From a virus: a stretch of 25,170 nucleotides of DNA. The position numbers were made by a program, and so were the translations under genes. The DNA lies in the IMG/VR virus record IMGVR_UViG_3300033388_001206, positions 1-25,170 of that record. One strand, given 5' to 3'. Below are positions 1 to 7,432 of this stretch, in pieces. Under the pieces are notes generated by a model. The model ran no database searches and was not told where the DNA came from. It worked only from the letters and a program-made list of their open reading frames with translations. Numbering within the stretch: the stretch's first letter is position 1; every line of letters begins with the position of its first letter.

Positions 1-74
1 TACTTATTGTTTTCAACCGTAGGCTTTATGACGCCATCGAAATCAATTGCAACTATTTTATATCTTCTTTTCAT
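1..74 (-). CDS. HAD-superfamily hydrolase, N-terminal fragment (runs off the left edge)
   Basis: Only the first 24 codons are inside the window. They read MKRRYKIVAIDFDGVIKPT and so on, and contain the HAD motif I, hydrophobic strand followed by DFDGV, in which the first Asp is the phosphorylated nucleophile and the second the general acid. HAD proteins are Mg-dependent phosphatases or related phosphotransferases; the substrate cannot be told from so short a piece. The ATG at 72-74 lies inside the 3' end of csf3, overlapping it by 17 nt, so the gene is very likely translated as part of the csf operon. Small HAD proteins are also common as phage accessory genes, so a link to the CRISPR genes is not shown. 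Confidence 0.7.
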   Translation of the reverse strand, partial: MKRRYKIVAIDFDGVIKPTVENNK

Positions 75-747
75 ACTTTACCTCCGGTATAAAACATAAG
101 CGTTGATGGTCGCTCCACCAGTACGGCGGCCTTATCCCCCACTGCCGAATCGTAACACCCACACGCGCCTGGCCATCGAAGGGAATAGCACGCATCAACC
201 TGCCATTCGGGCCGTACACGCTCCAATCTTCGGACCAGGGTGTAACTTCCCACCAATCTACGGCACCTAGTCCCTGGGAGGATTTTTTACCTATATGTGT
301 TACGCCTAAGCACAGATCCCGCACAGCCTCTATATCACCTACCGCATACCATACTAACTGGTCAAACAACTGCACCACCAACGGCATGCGGTAGGCTTTG
401 TACCTACTACTCTTTACATTTATCTTTCCACGCTTGCCACCGAAGTTGATATACTTCTCCAGGTGGTCGTCGAATCGCTTGTGCCAGTGCATGACGTATT
501 CGCCCAGGGGTGGCTCCATATTAAACGAGCAGGCCCAGTACCAGTTATCGCCATCCCCCCGGCGCTCGAAAGGAAGTTCCGGGGTAATGAGGTCATTGGT
601 CAGCATATGGCTGCTGGCATTATAATAAGCCTCCGGGTGGTTACGCCGCATCCATTCGGCGGCAAGGATTCCGTCAAGCGGAAACCAAGGGTCAGTTCCC
701 GCTATGCGTCCATCCTGCAAGCGTGCAGTAATGCGTATCGGCTGCAT
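58..747 (-). CDS. csf3: Type IV CRISPR-Cas protein Csf3 (Cas5-like)
   Basis: A 229-aa protein with RAMP character: a beta-strand-like N-terminus (MQPIRITARLQDGRIAG) and a glycine-rich loop, IGKKSSQGLGAV, at residues 152-163, typical of Cas5/RAMP proteins. In type IV systems the Cas5-like subunit Csf3 caps the 5' end of the crRNA in the effector complex. Length fits Csf3. The start ATG overlaps the csf2 stop codon by one base (TAATG), so translation is coupled, and the next gene downstream begins inside its 3' end. Seen: the loop, length and position. Inferred: the subtype and Cas5 role, from order after csf1, the small subunit and csf2. A different RAMP family (type I or III Cas5) is less likely because of the neighbours. 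Confidence 0.8.
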   Translation of the reverse strand: MQPIRITARLQDGRIAGTDPWFPLDGILAAEWMRRNHPEAYYNASSHMLTNDLITPELPFERRGDGDNWYWACSFNMEPPLGEYVMHWHKRFDDHLEKYINFGGKRGKINVKSSRYKAYRMPLVVQLFDQLVWYAVGDIEAVRDLCLGVTHIGKKSSQGLGAVDWWEVTPWSEDWSVYGPNGRLMRAIPFDGQARVGVTIRQWGIRPPYWWSDHQRLCFIPEVKYEKKI

Positions 748-1769
748 TACTTACCACCGCCAGCTGCAAGCAGTTTCTTTAGTTCATCCGCCTTGTTTTC
801 GAGATACTGGTTATAAAGCTGCACCAAGAAGTCATCATATTGGTTTTTCGCCTCTTCCGCGGGTTTGGACAACCATAAGCAATCTGCCGACACCGACAGA
901 AATTTTCCCGTAGTTTCTTTTGCCCCTGCTGGCCGCCAGGTGTATTCAATGTCGCATAACCCACAGCCTATGTTTGATTTTCCCCCAATATATGGATGTT
1001 TTGAAAACTCCACCAGCGCCGACACGAAGGCGCCCAGTTCCAGGTCGGTCATGTCGCATAAATCAATCCGCTGATACAAAACAGCACCCGCCGCCAGCAT
1101 TTCCACCGTGTACCTCATCTGCTGCGGCAGGTCCTCTTTCTTCTTTTTCTTTTCCTCCTGTACCGGTTCGCTTCCATCTGTTATCGCCAGGGTAGGCTGC
1201 CCTTCCGATAAGGCCAGGCGATTTTCCGCTGGATCATGTAGGTATTTGCGTAGGTTTTCGTTTTTAGCGTCGTCCATCCGCGTAAAACTTTTCTCAAACG
1301 TCCACTGCCGCCAGGACGGAGCGTTTGGATCGCGCAGGTGTTCCGGCAATATCCGCTGGCACTCGGCAACAAGCGGGTACATCGCGCCGATTTTGACTTT
1401 TCCCGTGAGGATCTGATTGCCTACGCTGCCGCCGAAAACGGAAAGCATGGGTACATTACGGCGGTAAAGGCGAGCCTGATCAATGTCAACGGATTGTTCC
1501 CCGCCCAGGGAGCCACCGGAGAAAAGCAGGTAGAACACCGCCGGATTATATTGCAGACCACCTAACTTTTCGGTCATGTAGATGGCAGCGAGGTCGCGCA
1601 GTATACCGCGGAACGAATTTCCACTGTAAATCGTACATTCTGTAGGTTTTCCGTCTGAATCAATAATGATATCGGTGGACAAATAGGAGTCAACGCCAAG
1701 CGACTCACCTATGTGTGAAAGCGGGCTTAATAATGTGATTTTTCCATCTAAACGAATGTTATGTGTCAT
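747..1769 (-). CDS. csf2: Type IV CRISPR-Cas protein Csf2 (Cas7-like backbone)
   Basis: A 340-aa protein that begins with a RAMP-type strand and the segment ITLLSPLSHIGES (residues 11-23), followed by SGNSFRGILRDL at 49-60. This 'isGnslRG.lR' signature is typical of Cas7-family backbone proteins, including Csf2. Csf2 polymerises along the crRNA guide to form the body of the type IV effector. Length matches the family. Residues about 205-220 are a Lys/Glu-rich, probably disordered linker (EEKKKKKEDLP). The start codon overlaps the stop of the cas11-like gene (TAATG) and its stop overlaps the csf3 start in the same way, a strictly coupled operon. Cas7 assignment is strong; the type IV label depends also on the adjacent csf1. 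Confidence 0.86.
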   Translation of the reverse strand: MTHNIRLDGKITLLSPLSHIGESLGVDSYLSTDIIIDSDGKPTECTIYSGNSFRGILRDLAAIYMTEKLGGLQYNPAVFYLLFSGGSLGGEQSVDIDQARLYRRNVPMLSVFGGSVGNQILTGKVKIGAMYPLVAECQRILPEHLRDPNAPSWRQWTFEKSFTRMDDAKNENLRKYLHDPAENRLALSEGQPTLAITDGSEPVQEEKKKKKEDLPQQMRYTVEMLAAGAVLYQRIDLCDMTDLELGAFVSALVEFSKHPYIGGKSNIGCGLCDIEYTWRPAGAKETTGKFLSVSADCLWLSKPAEEAKNQYDDFLVQLYNQYLENKADELKKLLAAGGGK

Positions 1770-2242
1770 TATTCAACTACCTCCCCTGTTTCTGTATCTA
1801 CGAATTTTGCTTCAATCGGCTTTTCTCTTTCAAGCCTATCTCTAACCAGCAAAATGACCAGCGAAGCTTTTTGATAAAGCACGTCCAGTACTTCCCGGTG
1901 ATCCACCATTTGCAACACGTCCGTTAAAAACTGCCTACGGCCCTTGTCCTGCACCTGGATAACAGACCCATCTTCCATCATCTTCATACTTATTATTCCG
2001 TCCGGCAGGGTCTTCGCCCAACGCGGGTGAATCGTTGAGCAATAAAGTTTTGGCTTTAGTTTTTCGATAAACTCTCCCAAATCAGTCGCTCGTTTAGCAA
2101 CGCTTTTCACGGCCCGTTCAGTCTGCCCCCATAGATCTGGCGTTACCTTGAAGCGTTTGACGTCCCGGCTCCGGTAAATTGCGTAAACTAAAAGGGCAGC
2201 TGTAGCTGCCCGCTCGTCGTCTGTATCAAAGTTGTAGAACAT
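1769..2242 (-). CDS. Putative Cas11-like small subunit of the type IV effector
   Basis: A 157-aa, mostly helical, charged protein with no motif I can name. It lies between csf1 and csf2, the position of the small subunit (Cas11) in type IV-B loci, and has a suitable length. The ATG at 2242 is preceded by an excellent ribosome binding site (AAAGGAGGAG, 5 nt before the start). This start is 55 nt inside the csf1 3' end, so the two genes overlap unusually far. The stop codon overlaps the csf2 ATG by one base. Cas11 proteins lie along the belly of the complex and stabilise crRNA or target strand binding. The Cas11 label is an inference from position, size and helical make-up; sequence alone does not prove it. 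Confidence 0.6.
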   Translation of the reverse strand: MFYNFDTDDERAATAALLVYAIYRSRDVKRFKVTPDLWGQTERAVKSVAKRATDLGEFIEKLKPKLYCSTIHPRWAKTLPDGIISMKMMEDGSVIQVQDKGRRQFLTDVLQMVDHREVLDVLYQKASLVILLVRDRLEREKPIEAKFVDTETGEVVE

Positions 2243-2958
2243 GGCTTCTCCTCCTTTTTCTTTTCTTCCAGCTTCTGCGCTACAAATATGGCCAGGTCGA
2301 AAAGCCTGGTTCCCCGGTGCGGCGCGATCTTTTCTTCCATTGCTTGAAACTCTGCTAATCCAAACTGCTTAATCCGGTTCTGGTTATACCGTCCCGTTCT
2401 GATTTCTTCCTTTGAAAATACGGCATATAACTGCTCAATTACACTCAGCCAGTCAGTTAGCGGTTTCCTCCAGACGCAGACCATCGTATCCTCGAACTGC
2501 ACCGGAAAGCCGTCTCTGTCGTAAGCCACCTGCGCCCGGAAATGCAGCCAACGCTGGCCGCTAATAGCTATACAGAACACAAACGGCGGTTCCGGCGGTT
2601 CAAGCAGGAAATTCCGGATCTCCGGCCTGGAAGGGTGTCTTAGCCCTGCTTCCGTAGCCAGTATGCTGTAATTTCTCAGCGACATAAACGATAGACAAAA
2701 GGCGCACCCTGGACACACTGATTTACTCCCCGGCCACCTGGCCTTGTCCCGGTCGGTAAATGTGTCTTTGATCGTCTTTTTTACCGGTTGGCCCCTGCCC
2801 CCGGTCAATCCGCCGCAAAGCCAGCAACGGGTGTCCGGTACGTCTGCCAGCGGCACATCGGTGTATTCCACCACTTTACCCATCGCTACGGGTACATGTG
2901 GCGTTTTCAGCGCGGCCTGCCTGATAAACTGCGTAGGCGTTAGCATCACCATCGCCAT
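2188..2958 (-). CDS. csf1: Type IV CRISPR-Cas protein Csf1 (large-subunit-like, zinc finger)
   Basis: A 256-aa protein with a four-cysteine zinc-binding pattern, CWLCGG at residues 45-50 and CPGC at 82-85 (another Cys at 88), separated by a basic stretch. A short protein of this size with paired CxxC motifs at the head of a csf2/csf3 operon is the hallmark of Csf1, the Cas8-like signature subunit of type IV systems. The rest has W-rich and basic segments and a Lys/Glu-rich tail. Start is uncertain: ATGs at 2958, 2952 and 2946 are in frame, and the AAGGAAGG site is best spaced for the one at 2952. It overlaps the upstream 104-aa gene and runs 55 nt into the cas11-like gene. No nuclease or helicase motif is visible. 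Confidence 0.8.
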   Translation of the reverse strand: MAMVMLTPTQFIRQAALKTPHVPVAMGKVVEYTDVPLADVPDTRCWLCGGLTGGRGQPVKKTIKDTFTDRDKARWPGSKSVCPGCAFCLSFMSLRNYSILATEAGLRHPSRPEIRNFLLEPPEPPFVFCIAISGQRWLHFRAQVAYDRDGFPVQFEDTMVCVWRKPLTDWLSVIEQLYAVFSKEEIRTGRYNQNRIKQFGLAEFQAMEEKIAPHRGTRLFDLAIFVAQKLEEKKKEEKPCSTTLIQTTSGQLQLPF

Positions 2959-3260
2959 CCCTTCCTTTCGTAAAGTTTGTTTGTCTCCATTCCCGGCAGT
3001 AACACTGTCGGCACTACCGGCCAGGCATTAACCTTATCTTCCGGGTAAATCACCGGGATCAGGTATTCAATGTCCTGGTATTTGGCCCGGTAAACGGGGC
3101 ATAAGCGGCGGTTATATACCTGAACGTCTACTTGCTGTCGGTTGTCCTGGAGTGCAGTCTGAATTATCGTGCGGATGGTTCTGGTCGGTAGATTTGCTAC
3201 GCGCTGGCGAAATCTCTCTACGGCGTGCGGCGAAACGTAAAATGGTTGCTTAAACATCAT
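2946..3260 (-). CDS. Small protein with an HAVERFRQR motif (DUF4258/RelE-like fold possible)
   Basis: A 104-aa protein starting FYVSPHAVERFRQRV (from residue 7). An N-terminal His-Ala-x-x-Arg-(Phe)-x-x-Arg motif followed by a helix and a strand-rich C-terminal half is the look of DUF4258-type, RelE-like small proteins often found in phages and mobile DNA. Here it could be an RNA-binding protein or a toxin-like ribonuclease, but no catalytic set can be confirmed. The start at 3260 lies 11 nt inside the upstream HTH-protein gene and its stop overlaps the start region of csf1, so it is co-translated with the csf genes. The family assignment is tentative. Confidence 0.5.
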   Translation of the reverse strand: MMFKQPFYVSPHAVERFRQRVANLPTRTIRTIIQTALQDNRQQVDVQVYNRRLCPVYRAKYQDIEYLIPVIYPEDKVNAWPVVPTVLLPGMETNKLYERKGWRW

Positions 3261-3741
3261 CGGTAGCCACTTCCCGCAATATGTCTGCTTTTCGTAGTGC
3301 TCGCAAAGCCACTCCGATCATGTGCAGAACGTACTGCTTCTTCTGATCCGCCCGCACTGCTTTTCTGTACCTGCACATGGCTATTTTTACGGCGGCAGGA
3401 CTTCTTCTCTTGAGTTTTTCCGCTATTTTCTTCACCGGCCAACCTTCAGCGTAACCGTCCACCATAATCTGGTTCTCTTCGTCCACCCAACGGGGCTTCG
3501 CTGGATAACCCAGAGAGAGGTACTTATAAACAGTCGTGTGCCCCAGTTTCAAAAGCCGCGCTACTTCATGTCCGTTTCGCTTTTCGGCGTAGAGTTGTCT
3601 GATCTGCTCTGGCTCCGCTTTTCTCTTGCCTCGTCGATCAGCCGGCGGATGACTTCGCCGATGCTGATTCCCCTGGTAAAACTCTCCGCCCTCAGCCAGG
3701 TGTACTGCACTTTGTTCACCAGTACATGCAGCTTGTGCCAC
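3250..3741 (-). CDS. HTH plus Myb/SANT-like DNA-binding protein (5' end overlaps the RHH gene; probably frame-disrupted)
   Basis: From codon 46 onward the frame reads as a DNA-binding protein. It has a resolvase-type helix-turn-helix (EQIRQLYAEKRNGHEVARLL then HTTVYKYLSLGY), a segment opening PRWVDEENQIM with Myb/SANT-like W and basic spacing, and a basic helical C-terminus. Such proteins act as phage transcription regulators or small-terminase-like DNA binders. The upstream part of the frame, overlapping the RHH gene, looks non-coding (VAQAACTGEQSAVH). The only usable start is the GTG at 3741, which shares one ribosome site with the TTG start of the RHH frame at 3743. The simplest reading is one ancestral 164-aa RHH-HTH protein broken by loss of one base in the A-run at 3619-3622. 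Confidence 0.6.
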   Translation of the reverse strand: MAQAACTGEQSAVHLAEGGEFYQGNQHRRSHPPADRRGKRKAEPEQIRQLYAEKRNGHEVARLLKLGHTTVYKYLSLGYPAKPRWVDEENQIMVDGYAEGWPVKKIAEKLKRRSPAAVKIAMCRYRKAVRADQKKQYVLHMIGVALRALRKADILREVATDDV

Positions 3742-3743
3742 AA
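3561..3743 (-). CDS. Ribbon-helix-helix (CopG/MetJ-type) protein
   Basis: A 60-aa protein from a TTG start at 3743, with GGGAGG eight bases upstream. Residues 4-42 read as a ribbon-helix-helix unit: a strand (LHVLVNKVQYTWLRAESF), the turn RGISIGEV and the helix IRRLIDEAREKR. RHH proteins bind operators as dimers, often autoregulating phage or toxin-antitoxin operons. After residue 43 the frame turns into Ser-rich sequence with no fold (SQSRSDNSTPKSE), while the overlapping frame becomes an HTH protein at the same point. That argues for a frameshift between the two. An open frame extends upstream to 3821 but crosses a hairpin and looks non-coding. The palindrome at 3779-3797 just upstream is a candidate operator. 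Confidence 0.55.
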   Translation of the reverse strand: MWHKLHVLVNKVQYTWLRAESFTRGISIGEVIRRLIDEAREKRSQSRSDNSTPKSETDMK

Positions 3744-3778
3744 CGATAACACCTCCCTTGTGGTATTGTGGAAGCAAT

Positions 3779-3817: not shown

Positions 3818-4003
3818 TCATTCCTCTGCTTTAAACAGCCACCCGTCCCGGGCAAAGGCAACGGGGATCATGCTACCATCGTCGGTAAAAGACATCAGCT
3901 TAAATAAATCCTCTTTGCTCAGGCCGCTTACTGTCTTGTTTCTGTGGTCTATCTCGTATTTATCAACACCCGCTTCTTCTAAGAATTTGATTGCGTCAAA
4001 CAC
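3818..4003 (-). CDS. Hypothetical 61-aa phage protein
   Basis: A small protein beginning MFDAIKFLEEAGVDKYEID. It starts with GTG at 4003, nine bases after GGGAGG, and overlaps the upstream Cys-rich gene by 8 nt. The composition (acidic and amphipathic helix at the N-terminus, then a short strand-rich part ending DGWLFKAEE) looks like a folded small domain. I do not recognise the family. The good ribosome site and the chained overlaps support that it is real. A terminator-like hairpin follows its stop codon. Confidence 0.6.
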   Translation of the reverse strand: MFDAIKFLEEAGVDKYEIDHRNKTVSGLSKEDLFKLMSFTDDGSMIPVAFARDGWLFKAEE

Positions 4004-4199
4004 CTGAATCTACCTCCCAGTAATTGCACCGGAGTTTAATTCTCGCTCCGTTATTGAACTTTTCGTCCAGCAAAAGTTCAATAAGCCTACACTTGCCGAA
4101 TCCTTCCCAAATGTAATGCTTGCACGTTCCGCAGTTTATCTTTTCCGTGCCTTCTTCTTTTGCTTCCCACAGGAGACACCCTCTAGAATTGACCATCAA
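3996..4199 (-). CDS. Cys-rich small protein (probable zinc-binding)
   Basis: A 67-aa frame with CGTCKHY at residues 23-29, a Cys at 37 and a late RCNYWE (57-62), a pattern seen in small phage and bacterial proteins of unknown role that may bind zinc or an iron-sulfur cluster. Start is uncertain: the frame opens at TTG 4199 with an ATG at 4196, both inside the 3' end of the upstream gene, and a shorter protein starting nearer the Cys motif is possible. It sits in a run of overlapping small genes. No function can be assigned. Confidence 0.55.
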   Translation of the reverse strand: MMVNSRGCLLWEAKEEGTEKINCGTCKHYIWEGFGKCRLIELLLDEKFNNGARIKLRCNYWEVDSGV

Positions 4200-4524
4200 G
4201 AATCCCCCACCTGTCCTTCCAGCTTAGATCGTTACAGGGTTGCCGGTCGGCCAGTTCCGCCTTTTTGGCTGCGTTCCATGCGTCTACGGGGGCCAGGTAG
4301 CCGGTTATCCGGCGGATTCTTTTAATCGGGGAGCGCGGGTAAGATTTGATTTCCACCTCATTGCCGTCTGCCGCCATTTCAATCTTTGCCAACGGATATT
4401 GCTTACCTTCCCACCTTTGGCGCTCTTCCGCTATAATTTCTTCCACCTGTTTTTCGTGTATTTCGCCGCGAACAATCACAGTAATGTCGTCTACTATGAA
4501 GCGCTTTTCGTCAGGCATCGCCAT
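4183..4524 (-). CDS. Small protein with an NrdD C-terminus-like segment
   Basis: A 113-aa protein. Residues 70-95 (IRRITGYLAPVDAWNAAKKA, then ELADR) closely resemble the C-terminal end of class III anaerobic ribonucleotide reductase (the RxxGYLxxxxxWNxxKxAExxDR pattern). The cysteines and the glycyl-radical site of a complete NrdD are absent, and the N-terminal 65 residues form a separate, charged helical region (VEEIIAEERQRWEG). It cannot be a reductase itself. Such NrdD-tail proteins occur as small stand-alone genes in some phages and Clostridia; their role is unknown. It begins inside the 3' end of the zinc-ribbon gene, overlapping by 14 nt, and is co-translated with it. Confidence 0.6.
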   Translation of the reverse strand: MAMPDEKRFIVDDITVIVRGEIHEKQVEEIIAEERQRWEGKQYPLAKIEMAADGNEVEIKSYPRSPIKRIRRITGYLAPVDAWNAAKKAELADRQPCNDLSWKDRWGILDGQF

Positions 4525-4687
4525 CGATCATCCCTTCGTAAGCAAAGGAAACGATTGCTTCTTCTTCAACCCAGCGTCCGCAGGAGAGGCATTTCAGCTT
4601 GCTGGCGAAGGGCGTTAGGCGGTTTGCCTCGGTAATTGTCTTGCAGTATGGGCATTTAACCTTGTAAATTTCGCCCTGGAGAACCAT
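4511..4687 (-). CDS. 58-aa zinc-ribbon protein
   Basis: A short gene opening with ATG at 4687, eight bases after a perfect AGGAGG. The product has two CxxC knuckles, KCPYCK at residues 11-16 and KCLSCG at 32-37, 17 residues apart, the layout of a rubredoxin-like zinc ribbon. The tail is acidic. Small zinc ribbons of this kind include Com-like translational activators and other phage regulators, but no specific function can be named. It heads a chain of overlapping small genes and lies just downstream of the dyad element at 4710-4743, which may hold its promoter. Confidence 0.75.
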   Translation of the reverse strand: MVLQGEIYKVKCPYCKTITEANRLTPFASKLKCLSCGRWVEEEAIVSFAYEGMIDGDA

Positions 4688-4756: not shown

Positions 4757-5818
4757 TTAATTTGGCCTGGTCAGTATGATCTCGCGTGTGTCTGCCCGAT
4801 ATTCAACGATATAGCCCATGTTTCCAGCCACAAATCGCAAAGGTATCATGGTTCGGGCCTTGTCGGTAATAAAAGGTTCCTGATCCATAAGCACCTGCAA
4901 GCCGTCTACCACAGCTATCTTGTTGCCAATGGTGAGTTCGATCTTTTTTGCGGCCTGGGGAGCGGCCAGATCCAACGCCGTCCACGCTTCATAAAAAGCC
5001 CACCCCATGTCGGTTTTGTATGTAACCCAGGGGTAAGGCAACCAAGCGTAGCCGTTATCACCCCAAGACGTTCCCCAGGAATTACGCAGGAGGAAAGCCT
5101 GCCTCTCGTCGCTGTACCCCACCAGCGCTACGGCATGGCCGCCGAGTATTCTGCCACCTGGAAGTGGAATGGCGTAATCCGGCGGCTTTACGTTGAGGAA
5201 GTTGCTACACACCAGCACGGCAGCCAGAACGACGCCTTCCTGATAGATTGCCCTTTTGAGTTCTTCTACCTTACCCGTACGGTTTTTGTCGGTAAAGTTA
5301 CAAACCGAGGCATAAGTTTGGATTTTGTATTTTGCGGCGGAAGTATTCAGGTTAGACGGCAGAGCAGGCACGTTCTTATCGCTGGTTAGCCAGGAATACG
5401 GTAGTTGCTCCTCTGTACACACACCGAAATCACGAAGAACTTTGAGAGCTACCCTTGGGTAAGTTCCGGTCTGGTCAGGTATCCCGTCCATCTGCTTGCA
5501 TTTAGCGTAGAGGTATGCTACGGATAAACCGCTGGCTGGGAAGTCTCCCTGTACGGTCTCCTGAAAAGCCTTCAGACCCCAGCAGGAGGCCGCCGCAACA
5601 CAGGTTCCGTAAGAACCCTGGTTCCATACCGGCGGCAGGTTCGAGCGGTAGTCTACTTCAAACGGTATCTGTTCTGCCGTAAGTTGCGGTACAAGGTTAG
5701 CGTACCTATAATCCCGATAATCCGGCGAGGACGGATATGCTCCGGTAACGTAGTCACCTGCGCCGCCTAAAGCCGTGGTCAGTTCGTTCATGGCTTTACG
5801 CCAAAGATTCCACGCCAT
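4757..5818 (-). CDS. Papain-family (C1A) cysteine protease with C-terminal copper-amine-oxidase-N-like stalk domain
   Basis: A 353-aa protein. The protease part spans about residues 45-285 with the oxyanion Gln67 and catalytic Cys73 in WNQGSYGTC, His228 in GGHAVALVGY and Asn246 in LLRNSWGTSWGDNGYAW, a complete C1A active site. Residues 292-352 (KIELTIGNKIAVVDG, later ARTMIPLRFVAGNMG) form a stalk or copper-amine-oxidase-N1-type beta domain, common on cell-surface proteins of Clostridia. No signal peptide is evident. It follows the amidase in the lysis region, behind a terminator-like hairpin. Possible roles are cleavage of peptide cross-links or surface proteins during lysis, or an accessory gene changing the host surface. 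The start at 5818 is uncertain; ATG 5791 is an alternative. Confidence 0.85.
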   Translation of the reverse strand: MAWNLWRKAMNELTTALGGAGDYVTGAYPSSPDYRDYRYANLVPQLTAEQIPFEVDYRSNLPPVWNQGSYGTCVAAASCWGLKAFQETVQGDFPASGLSVAYLYAKCKQMDGIPDQTGTYPRVALKVLRDFGVCTEEQLPYSWLTSDKNVPALPSNLNTSAAKYKIQTYASVCNFTDKNRTGKVEELKRAIYQEGVVLAAVLVCSNFLNVKPPDYAIPLPGGRILGGHAVALVGYSDERQAFLLRNSWGTSWGDNGYAWLPYPWVTYKTDMGWAFYEAWTALDLAAPQAAKKIELTIGNKIAVVDGLQVLMDQEPFITDKARTMIPLRFVAGNMGYIVEYRADTREIILTRPN

Positions 5819-5924: not shown

Positions 5925-6695
5925 TTAGGTAAGATTCTTAAAGGCCGTGTACAGCTTCACAAGCAAAGCATCGAGATTCTTAATGTATCTTAGAGCACCT
6001 CTCCAATAATCCGGGTTACTAATGATACCTCTGCTCACCAGCCAATCAATTACTTGCTCCGGATTAACTTTATCTACGAAATTCACTCCCAGGTATTGGC
6101 ATATTGCTTTTGCTATCACCTTACCTACAAGTTCTTGATTCCCCGCGTTGGTCAGCCAAGCCTCTTCTATAGGGTTGGAAAGAAAAGCCACTTCCACCAG
6201 GGCAGCGGGCATAGCGGTATGGCGTAGCACATAGAAATGTGCTTCCTTCACTCCTCTGTTTTGTAACTCGGTAGCCTCTCCCGCCGTGACGGGAATATCT
6301 GCTTCCTTCACGGCAATAATTTTGCCAGACGGCGTATTGGTGGCAAGGAATAGTTGCATGTTCAGTAGGTTCGCCAGTCGCAGGCCCTCCTTGCTCCCCT
6401 CGTAGTAGTAGACTTCCAGACCGTTGGCCTCCGGGTTCTCGCTTGCGTTAGCGTGGATCGAGACAAAGCACGAGGCACCAGACTTATTTGCTATGTCACA
6501 TCGTTGCTGAAGGCTTACGTCTACATCATTCTTGCGGGTCATTACAACTTCAACGCCTTGCTTACTCAGCCACCCGCTTGCACAGAAAGCAATACTGAGG
6601 TTAACGTGCTTTTCGGTAACGCCCATGGATCCTAAGGCTCCCGGGTCTCGTCAGCGGCCCCCGTGGCCAGGATCAACGCACGCAATCAGGGGCAT
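5925..6695 (-). CDS. N-acetylmuramoyl-L-alanine amidase (Amidase_3) endolysin, interrupted by an in-frame TGA at codon 15
   Basis: The frame from ATG 6695 has a textbook ribosome site (AGGAGG, 8 nt upstream) and encodes MPLIACVDPGHGGR, then TGA at 6651-6653, then RDPGALGSMGVTEKHVNLSI and a full Amidase_3 domain. Zinc ligands would be His11 (DPGHGG), Glu28 (TEKH) and His81 (SIHAN), with catalytic Glu168 (LVEVAFLSN). The C-terminal 60 residues are a small helical region. Amidase_3 enzymes cut the MurNAc-L-Ala bond of peptidoglycan. Translation from ATG 6626 gives a 233-aa protein lacking His11, which should be inactive. Between GHGG and DPGA one residue is usual; here there are three codons, CGC TGA CGA, so a 6-nt insertion is possible. 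TGA followed by C is a leaky context. Confidence 0.85.
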
Positions 6696-6718: not shown

Positions 6719-6853
6719 TTAGCACCCTTCTGGTTCAGTTGTGTCGCTTGTCCAGTCGAAAACTATTCCCTCCACGTCAGGATCAGCAAAATCCAGATCA
6801 GCGTCAGGGGCATCGCAAAGAGGGCAAACAGGGAAATTACTTCGGTATAACAT
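6719..6853 (-). CDS. 44-aa acidic protein with a CPLC motif
   Basis: A short frame from ATG 6853 to TAA 6719, starting inside the 3' end of the holin gene (17-nt overlap) and ending just before the AGGAGG of the amidase gene. The product has CPLC at residues 10-13 and a very acidic middle (DAPDADLDFADPDVEG). Coupling between holin and endolysin and the biased, non-random composition argue that it is translated. The family is unknown to me; a lysis accessory role would be a guess. Confidence 0.5.
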   Translation of the reverse strand: MLYRSNFPVCPLCDAPDADLDFADPDVEGIVFDWTSDTTEPEGC

Positions 6854-7259
6854 TTTCTTTCGTCCCCTCACTTTTTTTCTTGATCTGATCAAGGGCATCT
6901 TTAATCACGCCCGGGATAGGTATATCCATCCTGCTTAAATTTTCCAGTATGGATAAACCCTCATTTGCAATGTAGAAGAATATCGCCAGGTTGCGCAGGA
7001 TTTCCGCGCCAAGCAGAATATCCAGCCAGTACCCAATCGCCACGGGTACAAACAACAGAATCTTCTTCGCAATGCCCCGCAGCCCTACATTTGAATCCAA
7101 CTTCTTTTCGTACCATGCAGCGGTCAAGCCGGCGATATAATCCATTACCACGAATATAACGAGGATTTTTAGCGCCACGTCCCAACCTCCCAGCAAACCG
7201 ACCAGAAGGCCGCCGACAATTGCAACAGCCGCTTTGATTGAAGGTATTAAGTTGTCCAT
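6837..7259 (-). CDS. Phage holin (toxin secretion/phage lysis holin family)
   Basis: A 140-aa membrane protein starting at ATG 7259 (MDNLIPSIKAAVAIV). It has hydrophobic segments at about residues 9-24, 27-44, 63-78 and 83-97, then an amphipathic, charged C-terminal tail (DALDQIKKKSEGTKENV). The motif DYIAGLTAAW followed by a 'GLRGIAKK' segment is typical of the Firmicutes phage holin family (Holin_4, TcdE/UtxA-like). It forms membrane lesions that release the endolysin or collapse the membrane potential at the end of infection. An open frame extends 30 codons further upstream, but that stretch contains a terminator hairpin and is not likely coding. The amidase gene follows downstream, forming a lysis cassette. 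Confidence 0.88.
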   Translation of the reverse strand: MDNLIPSIKAAVAIVGGLLVGLLGGWDVALKILVIFVVMDYIAGLTAAWYEKKLDSNVGLRGIAKKILLFVPVAIGYWLDILLGAEILRNLAIFFYIANEGLSILENLSRMDIPIPGVIKDALDQIKKKSEGTKENVIPK

Positions 7260-7278
7260 GTAACCACGCCCCTTTCCG

Positions 7279-7307
7279 CAAAAATTAAAGCCGCCTATTT
7301 CGGCGGC
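7279..7307 (-). terminator. Intrinsic terminator upstream of the holin gene
   Basis: On the minus strand GCCGCC-GAAATA-GGCGGC is followed by TTTAATTTTTG, a classic GC stem and U-tract, 20 nt before the holin start. It would separate the tail transcript from the lysis cassette unless transcription is antiterminated. Confidence 0.75.
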
Positions 7308-7432
7308 AGTCATCTCTTTTGTTGTGTTATCTCGCTGAATGTTCTTCATTACTTGTTACATGATTGTCGAATCTTTCCGCAAACCTATGGACCTGTTCCT
7401 CATGTCTGGTAACTCGGATCTCAAGGAGACAT

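What the first reader, a model, noticed from the sequence alone, without database searches (positions are those of the whole stretch)
58..2958. Type IV (IV-B-like) CRISPR effector operon inside a phage late/accessory region
Four minus-strand genes in the order csf1, cas11-like, csf2, csf3 are chained by overlaps (55 nt, then two TAATG one-base overlaps) and preceded without a break by small phage genes. Csf1 has paired CxxC motifs, Csf2 an RAMP SGNSFRG motif and Csf3 a glycine-rich loop. Type IV systems are known mostly from plasmids and some prophages; IV-B has this gene order and usually a cysH-like gene and no array. Here no cysH, dinG, cas6/csf5, adaptation gene or array is in view. A phage-borne Csf complex with no own guide source could use host crRNAs or act on other elements, a possible inter-phage or phage-plasmid competition system.
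Basis: partly seen in the sequence, partly recalled or inferred. Interest (0 to 1): 0.92.

Follow-up and report, generated by a model that had tools for sequence, protein, structure and literature searches.

The report
Phage-borne type IV-B CRISPR operon
A bacterial virus carries, just after its cell-lysis genes, the genes for a rare CRISPR-like RNA-protein complex (type IV-B) together with a small protein of a toxin-RNase-like fold that recurs beside this complex in other phages, which gives a handle on a CRISPR subtype whose job is still unknown.

Summary
Window 58-2958(-) holds csf1, cas11, csf2, csf3; PADLOC type IV profiles match at E 6e-35 to 2e-65 and the nearest solved Csf2 is IV-B (7jhy). 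The rest of the 25-kb virus record is a siphophage late module. 26 other viral contigs carry csf genes. A CysH-like gene lies near csf in 22 of 26 distinct loci, cas6 in 3; lysis genes often precede csf. Main new point: the 104-aa ORF overlapping csf1 has a predicted RelE-like fold and recurs in IV-B operons: 10 of 12 viral contigs found by searching for it have csf beside it, all 3 csf2-positive genomes of 398 have it, and in three loci it is fused to an HTH domain. Probable hosts: spore-forming Bacillota. New variant of a known kind; function is inferred.

The parts
2188..2958 (-). csf1 (type IV Cas8-like large subunit, 256 aa, two CxxC motifs)
   Evidence: PADLOC typeIV_Cas8 E 5.8e-35; NCBIfam TIGR03114 9.4e-21, below cut-off
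1769..2242 (-). cas11 (type IV small subunit, 157 aa)
   Evidence: PADLOC typeIV_Cas11 E 5.7e-43
747..1769 (-). csf2 (type IV Cas7-like backbone, 340 aa)
   Evidence: PADLOC typeIV_Cas7 E 1.7e-65; best solved structure 7jhy IV-B Csf2 E 1.3e-19
58..747 (-). csf3 (type IV Cas5-like, 229 aa)
   Evidence: PADLOC typeIV_Cas5 E 6.1e-50; Csf3 structures 5.6e-10
2946..3260 (-). small RelE/BECR-like-fold protein (104 aa), overlaps csf1 by 13 nt; recurrent IV-B operon gene
   Evidence: AF2 model pLDDT 75.7, aligns with RelE/ParE/HigB/CdiA-type chains at Z up to 7.4; linkage
3250..3777 (-). HTH protein (listed start is a TTG; true start uncertain), overlaps the RelE-like ORF by 11 nt
   Evidence: Pfam HTH_7 1.3e-6, HTH_23 3.4e-6; PHROG D5-like regulator 4.7e-8; relatives in L004, L009, L041, L046, L064, L065, L068, L073, L081, L082
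3561..3821 (-). 86-aa ORF, ribbon-helix-helix-like by eye only, overlaps the listed HTH ORF
   Evidence: no Pfam support; similar ORF in L004 by eye
3818..4687 (-). four small overlapping ORFs (61, 67, 113, 58 aa) that join the csf run to the lysis side with no gap between them
   Evidence: the 113-aa ORF has a short NrdD C-terminal match 2.5e-7
1..74 (-). start of a further gene cut by the contig end (24 aa; DFDG motif recalled from HAD hydrolases; family not testable)
   Evidence: no relatives found
4757..5818 (-). papain-like (C1) peptidase gene of the phage, neighbour; homologues near csf in L002 and L041
   Evidence: PHROG peptidase 1.6e-14
5925..6626 (-). endolysin (lysis cassette, neighbour)
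   Evidence: PHROG endolysin 1.4e-41
6837..7349 (-). holin (lysis cassette, neighbour)
   Evidence: PHROG holin 4.1e-28

Best explanation
This is a phage-borne type IV-B CRISPR effector operon placed at the end of the phage's lysis/late transcription unit. Shown: the four Csf genes, their overlap chain, purifying selection, phage context, recurrence in other phages, and a linked RelE-like-fold ORF. Inferred by homology with the solved IV-B complex: Csf2 and Cas11 form a helical filament on an RNA of fixed length, with Csf3 and Csf1 at its ends. Inferred: the complex is made late or in a lysogen, is loaded with RNAs that do not come from an own array, and acts on other mobile elements or on the host's RNA-guided defences, probably with the CysH-like partner that relatives encode near csf3. 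Inferred and least sure: the small RelE-like protein is an RNase working with the complex, either trimming the loaded RNA where cas6 is absent or acting as its effector.
For: Identity. Phage context. Selection. Recurrence in 26 other viral contigs. CysH-like gene near csf in 22 of 26 distinct loci. Endolysin on the csf1 side in 7 of 8 close loci with that side in view. RelE-like gene: fold; linkage; also in a Rhodovastum plasmid IV-B locus that was reached through csf2. IV-B RNP assembling on non-CRISPR RNA of about 55-60 nt: PMC7937560 (passages).
Against: No cysH, array or guide is visible in the window itself, and the contig is cut. Csf2 tree forks near the window are mostly unresolved, and the plasmid IV-B clade is separate. 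The RelE fold match is moderate: the five models ranged from pLDDT 75.7 down to 43.6, Foldseek E at best 0.25, Z at most 7.4, a level the tool calls common; no catalysis is shown. Weak relatives of the protein exist without csf in view (G114, G206, G429, L069). 14 of the 26 loci lack it. Its fusion to an HTH in three loci fits a regulator or toxin-antitoxin role at least as well as RNA trimming.
Confidence: 0.55

Rival explanations
1. RNA sponge: the complex soaks up host crRNAs or other small guide RNAs and so protects the phage from RNA-guided defence, without targeting anything itself.
For: IV-B complexes bind heterogeneous RNA, and a sponge function was proposed (PMC7937560, PMC8175902; passages); a phage Cas9 thought to capture host guides is described (PMC10910872, passage). 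No recognised effector nuclease among the ten ORFs scanned.
Against: [quoted passage not shown] A late, lysis-linked position is odd for a counter-defence gene needed on entry, unless lysogenic. Host Cas6 found in 1 of 5 genomes only. Does not explain CysH.
Confidence: 0.3
2. Guided interference against competing plasmids or phages with crRNAs made by the host or by phage mini-arrays elsewhere.
For: Relatives L004-L008 carry a Cas6 with a conserved His36 and glycine-rich loop (roles recalled). One of these phages also has a Cas12m-like protein with a degenerate repeat cluster. IV-A works by guided transcription block (PMC11656645, passages); an archaeal virus IV-B locus has a mini-array (PMC10848311, passages).
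Against: No array in the window or beside the csf genes of the relatives scanned; no cas6 in view in the window.
Confidence: 0.3
3. The RelE-like gene and the HTH are a toxin-antitoxin pair or an autoregulator of the operon, not part of the RNP.
For: Most of the 50 listed fold neighbours are toxins of TA pairs or CDI toxins. A related HTH is present in 9 of 15 loci with the RelE-like gene and is fused to it in one frame in L068, L081 and L082. Weak relatives occur without csf in view.
Against: It keeps company with csf over wide divergence and in changing positions (before csf1, between csf1 and cas11, between cas11 and csf2, between csf3 and cysH). No HTH relative was found in 6 of the 15 loci (L002, L048, L053, L066, L080, L089/L090).
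Confidence: 0.35
4. Chromosomal or plasmid DNA wrongly joined to a phage.
For: The contig end lies at the operon; metagenome assembly.
Against: Unbroken run of overlapping ORFs from the lysis side; same cassette beside lysis genes in other phage contigs and in a prophage-like region of a genome.
Confidence: 0.02

Closest known systems
Type IV-B CRISPR-Cas of actinobacterial megaplasmids (Mycobacterium sp. JS623, PDB 7jhy; Rhodococcus, Xylanimonas)
   Same: csf1-cas11-csf2-csf3 set; PAPS-reductase-like gene annotated nearby in 3 of 4 plasmid loci fetched; Csf2 best PDB match
   Different: On a phage; Csf2 25-33% identical to the 20 plasmid hits listed, separate branch, with RelE-like and HTH genes in the operon
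Skermania phage SPI1 (KR011061), isolated phage
   Same: SPI1_40-43 match type IV Cas8, Cas11, Cas7, Cas5, SPI1_44 matches our CysH profile (3.1e-23); unannotated in the record; annotated lysin and holin lie 2-3 kb beyond
   Different: 31% identical Csf2; groups with plasmid IV-B; no RelE-like gene found; the only one of 50,697 phage records matched by Csf2
Fuxiviridae (Bathyarchaeia virus) atypical IV-B
   Same: virus-borne effector module with CysH next to csf3 (PMC10848311, passages)
   Different: archaeal virus, has a mini-array; sequence not compared here
Gloeobacter morelensis plasmid pGMOR1 type IV locus
   Same: Csf2, Csf3, Cas11-like and Csf1-like genes and a PAPS-reductase gene
   Different: cas6 annotated between csf2 and csf3; different gene order; Csf2 28.5% identical
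RelE/ParE/HigB toxins, CdiA-CT toxins, Cami1
   Same: predicted fold of the 104-aa protein
   Different: no sequence match; invariant H12 and T85 not tied to any tested activity

Membership tests
Type IV CRISPR-Cas | Csf2 (Cas7), Csf3 (Cas5) and Csf1 of type IV families | tested here: met
Subtype IV-B | Cas11-like small subunit encoded in the operon | tested here: met
   typeIV_Cas11 E 5.7e-43
Subtype IV-B | CysH-like ancillary gene | not testable with these tools
   window contig ends 57 nt past csf3; present near csf in 22 of 26 distinct relatives
Subtype IV-B | no CRISPR array | tested here: inconclusive
   none in the 25,170 bases, but the record is a fragment
Subtype IV-B | no dinG, no Cas10-like HD subunit | tested here: inconclusive
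   none among the ten nearest ORFs scanned; contig cut
Subtype IV-B | Csf2 groups with IV-B in a tree | tested here: inconclusive
   11 of 22 inner branches unresolved; plasmid IV-B plus Skermania phage form their own starred clade
Subtype IV-A | no Cas11 gene; dinG, cas6 and array | tested here: not met
   Cas11 present; no dinG among the ten ORFs scanned
Subtype IV-C | Cas10-like large subunit with HD domain in place of Csf1 | tested here: not met
   256-aa Csf1 matches typeIV_Cas8
RelE/BECR RNase (104-aa ORF) | fold of the superfamily | tested here: inconclusive
   model pLDDT 75.7; Z up to 7.4; Foldseek best E 0.25
RelE/BECR RNase (104-aa ORF) | RNase activity | not tested
   needs bench work

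The most novel reading that the evidence does not exclude
Phage IV-B systems include a previously unrecognised component, a small RelE-fold RNase that makes or trims the RNA loaded into the Csf filament where cas6 is missing (or is its effector), so that IV-B is an array-free, RNase-fed RNP deployed late in phage infection.
Probability: 0.18. Interest if true: 0.88.

Novelty: new variant of a known kind. Interest (0 to 1): 0.64.

Why it matters
The function of type IV-B is an open question: usually no array, no recognised nuclease, heterogeneous bound RNA (PMC7937560, PMC8175902; passages). A compact phage-borne lineage with a recurrent genomic address (after the endolysin), a linked RelE-fold gene, an optional cas6 and a CysH-like partner turns this into testable questions: when the complex is made, which RNA it holds, and whether the RelE-like protein changes that RNA or controls the operon.

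Tried and rejected
Wrong join to a phage: rejected. CRISPR array beside csf: none found in the stretches scanned. A 28-nt repeat pair in G007 lies in an exact 407-nt inverted repeat far from csf and stays unexplained; the repeat cluster after Cas12m in L006 was looked at; the other pairs listed were not followed. Rfam at gathering score on 7 sources: only a Twister-sister in L008. Identity of the cut ORF 1-74: no relatives. Membrane protein model: pLDDT 36, unusable, dropped. Exclusion of cas6 and the RelE-like gene: never together, but p = 0.19 on the 22 loci entered by hand, not significant. Shared capsid with relatives: 0 of 8 records, and the tool warns that an empty answer shows nothing. 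Fusion of RelE-like protein and Csf1 in L089/L090: one open frame of 347 aa, but with a ribosome-site-like stretch and ATG at the csf1 start, and the two contigs are identical over the 3,300 nt compared, so at most one case. RelE-like match in L033 rests on the motif by eye (HMM E 0.17).

In one search one HTH query (from L041) was cut out of frame; its two hits (L041 9513-10019, L009 711-1322) are the RelE-like ORF itself and were discarded.

In one search (IV-B, CRISPR, RelE: 19 papers) the last term also catches 'released'; of those 19, passages of PMC12669027, PMC11437467, PMC9071438 and PMC10848311 were read. Pinilla-Redondo 2020, Moya-Beltran 2021 and Al-Shayeb 2022 are not held, so earlier mention of this small gene there cannot be excluded.
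Full report
WHAT IS THERE. The window is an IMG/VR virus record of 25,170 bases. Positions 58-2958 on the minus strand hold csf1, cas11, csf2 and csf3 with overlaps of 55, 1 and 1 nt. PADLOC type IV profiles match all four (Csf1 5.8e-35, Cas11 5.7e-43, Csf2 1.7e-65, Csf3 6.1e-50); NCBIfam Csf1-3 match below their cut-offs, Pfam gives only a weak RAMP hit for Csf2 (0.012). Profile searches of solved structures put the IV-B Csf2 7jhy first for Csf2 (1.3e-19, then an entry named Cas7c at 4.2e-19, then Csf2 of entries such as 8rc2 and 7xfz), and find Csf3 and Csf1 chains of such entries for those subunits; the Cas11 profile found one designed protein only. PHROGs give major capsid, tape measure, tail, head-tail, protease, holin and endolysin matches in the rest. 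PHROGs also holds two families of unknown function that match this Csf3 and Csf2 (phrog_34599, phrog_22746).

THE CONTIG END. A further ORF starts at 74 with a ribosome-site-like GGAGG before it, overlaps csf3 by 17 nt and runs off the record (24 residues). Its DFDG motif recalls HAD hydrolases (from memory; two searches found no relative). So the absence of cysH, cas6 or an array downstream of csf3 cannot be judged from this window.

RELATIVES. Searches with Csf2, Csf3, Csf1 and the small ORF brought 26 other viral contigs with csf genes, some of them near-duplicates (L002/L003, L005/L006, L007/L008, L089/L090). The one scan of genome contigs with Csf2 found a single locus, L009 (Csf2 about 80% identical). 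In the phage collection Csf2 matched 1 of 50,697 records, Skermania phage SPI1; in plasmids 124 of 72,556 at E 1e-5, all under 60% identity. The 22 distinct viral loci and four genome loci (L009, L073, L081, L082) were scanned with profiles built from our own alignments (some also by Pfam and PADLOC). A CysH-like (PAPS-reductase) gene lies near csf in 22 of 26; the misses are L004 and L064 (contig ends), L036 and L051. In L002 and L068 it is more than about 1 kb away, in L050 it lies between csf1 and cas11. None of 12 CysH-like proteins checked has the ECGLH-type motif (recalled) of true PAPS reductases, but the L009 copy is cut at its end. cas6 is present in 3 of 26 (L004; L005/L006; L007/L008), Pfam PF10040 at 6.9e-14 to 1e-11. 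L004 also has a second csf1 and csf3.

GENOMIC ADDRESS. By PHROGs an endolysin precedes csf1 in the window (2,966 nt), L004 (about 2.2 kb), L005 (51 nt), L007 (about 0.3 kb) and L041 (about 0.8 kb); these endolysins fall into three PHROG families by best match. Lysin relatives also precede the operon in L073 (about 0.5 kb, in a 147-kb contig of genome G090) and L089 (about 3.8 kb), and a holin relative in L064. In L002 the corresponding 318-aa ORF had no match. That makes 7 of 8 for lysins. With these queries no lysin was found near csf in L033-L036, L043-L048, L050, L051, L066, L068, L081 and L082; the one weak match in L065 (7.9e-5) is not counted. The queries miss unlike lysins: SPI1 has an annotated lysin and holin 2-3 kb beyond its csf genes. 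DNA similarity between the window and the 67-kb relatives G004 and G007 is confined to 221-2946, i.e. the csf genes. The cassette thus moves between different phages but in the close group tends to sit after the lysis genes.

THE SMALL OVERLAPPING GENE. The ORF at 2946-3260 overlaps csf1 by 13 nt. Members found before csf1 in five loci were aligned. The best AlphaFold2 model (pLDDT 75.7, pTM 0.69; the five ranged down to 43.6) is helix-helix-three strands; most of the 50 chains listed by the second-look aligner are RelE, ParE, HigB, YoeB, YafQ, MqsR, CdiA-type or Cami1 (Z up to 7.4). Foldseek's best E is 0.25 in the PDB and 0.12 among viral models. No sequence family matches. Eleven members keep H12, F17, P69, P81 and T85.

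LINKAGE. Two scans of viral contigs with its alignments give 12 contigs in all: 10 have csf genes beside it, L060/L086 ends right after it, L069/L094 is a weak match without csf. Four of the ten are self-hits or near-copies of loci in the first alignment, and L060 carries the same protein start as L041. Of the seven others six are csf-linked, two of which (L089, L090) are identical. In 398 genomes of the phylum of G008, 5 match and 4 of these have csf1 next to it (G008 itself is a self-hit). With the wider alignment on 398 genomes of the phylum of G090, a sample that overlaps the first, 7 match: the four strong ones (E 4.7e-27 or better) all sit by csf1, the three weak ones (G114, G206, G429; 9.5e-10 to 7.6e-7) do not as far as fetched, on short contigs in two cases. 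In the other direction, 3 of 398 genomes have Csf2 at 1e-10 and all 3 have the small gene; so does G090. It was also found in the Rhodovastum plasmid locus, fetched for its Csf2, between csf3 and cysH. Its place varies: before csf1, between csf1 and cas11, between cas11 and csf2, between csf3 and cysH. It is present in 12 of the 26 loci (some of which were fetched by it) and absent from all three with cas6; that exclusion is not significant (p = 0.19). L046 keeps a truncated copy, and L080 (G229) a shortened operon with csf1 cut to 148 aa and a cysH fragment.

THE HTH. A protein related to the window's HTH is found in 9 of 15 loci that have the RelE-like gene (window, L009, L041, L064, L065, L068, L073, L081, L082) and also in L004 and L046; in L068, L081 and L082 it is in one frame with the RelE-like part. 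So the two may form one regulatory or toxin-antitoxin-like unit tied to csf operons. This weighs against a pure RNA-trimming role.

HOST. Five genomes that hold the operon or part of it (G008, G090, G108, G229, G306) all have Spo0A; of 14 control genomes only Bacillus subtilis does. The hosts of this group are thus probably spore-forming Bacillota, although the record of L009 is titled Deltaproteobacteria. The window's own host is inferred from this and not shown. Cas6 was found in 1 of these 5 genomes.

TREE. A Csf2 tree of 25 rows puts the window with L009, L002, L005 and L007 (94/96). Plasmid IV-B from four actinobacteria and Skermania phage form a separate starred clade; 11 of 22 inner branches are unresolved and several end branches are long, so a single origin of the phage group is neither shown nor excluded.

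HOW IT MAY WORK. From the solved IV-B complex (PMC7937560, passages), Csf2 and Cas11 should form a filament on RNA of even length. Guide source, target and role of CysH are unknown there too (PMC8175902, passages). I think a late or lysogenic RNP that takes up RNA without an own array and acts against other elements or RNA-guided defence is the likeliest; whether it works as guided complex or sponge is open. The RelE-like protein is the best new lead: it might make or trim the RNA, or control the operon. Either step is inference from a moderate fold match plus strong linkage.

NOVELTY. Type IV in phages and prophages, and IV-B in an archaeal virus, are known (PMC11656645, PMC10848311; passages). 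A RelE-like IV-B gene was not met in the passages read; the searches were made, and key surveys of type IV are not held. Hence: new variant of a known kind.

Noticed in passing
L006 17155-18867 (+) and 18943-19353: A relative phage contig that carries csf, cas6 and cysH also encodes a Cas12u1/Cas12m-like protein (PADLOC 5.9e-141) followed by up to six degenerate 38-nt repeat-like units at uneven spacing, most ending in GAAC or GAAAC; the outer ones are weak.
   Followed up: partly
L073 2521-3840 (-): Cas12u3/TnpB-like protein (4.4e-82) about 6 kb from the prophage-like type IV-B operon of genome G090.
   Followed up: no
L005 13250-14188, L007 13055-13984, L046 13317-14219: A conserved ~300-aa multi-helix membrane protein sits next to cysH in three loci (30% identity L005-L046, E 3e-27); no Pfam match for the L005 copy, a weak PHROG of unknown function (2.8e-6).
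   Followed up: partly
G007: L021 8768-9174 and L023 3508-3914: Exact 407-nt inverted repeat holding two 28-nt direct repeats 37 nt apart, like a one-spacer mini-array; unexplained.
   Followed up: partly
L068 4959-6104, L081 7598-8341, L082 1107-1913: RelE-like part and HTH part in one reading frame beside csf genes.
   Followed up: partly
L089 6001-7044, L090 84-1127: RelE-like protein and Csf1 lie in one uninterrupted frame of 347 aa, with an internal ATG and ribosome-site-like stretch at csf1.
   Followed up: partly
L080 7555-8515 (-): Decayed operon in a genome: RelE-like gene, csf1 cut to 148 aa, cysH fragment.
   Followed up: no
L004 10503-11976: Second, divergent csf1 and csf3 pair downstream of the first csf set.
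   Followed up: no
L009 (JAGUVT010000042.1): Record titled Deltaproteobacteria, but its genome (G008) has Spo0A, which points to Bacillota.
   Followed up: partly
L052 6846-10479 (Skermania phage SPI1, SPI1_40-44): Type IV effector genes unannotated in an isolated phage; SPI1_44 matches our CysH profile (3.1e-23) but only weakly PADLOC DndC/BrxP models (0.01-0.04).
   Followed up: partly
L008 14707-14777 (+): Twister-sister ribozyme match over the gathering score in a relative phage.
   Followed up: no
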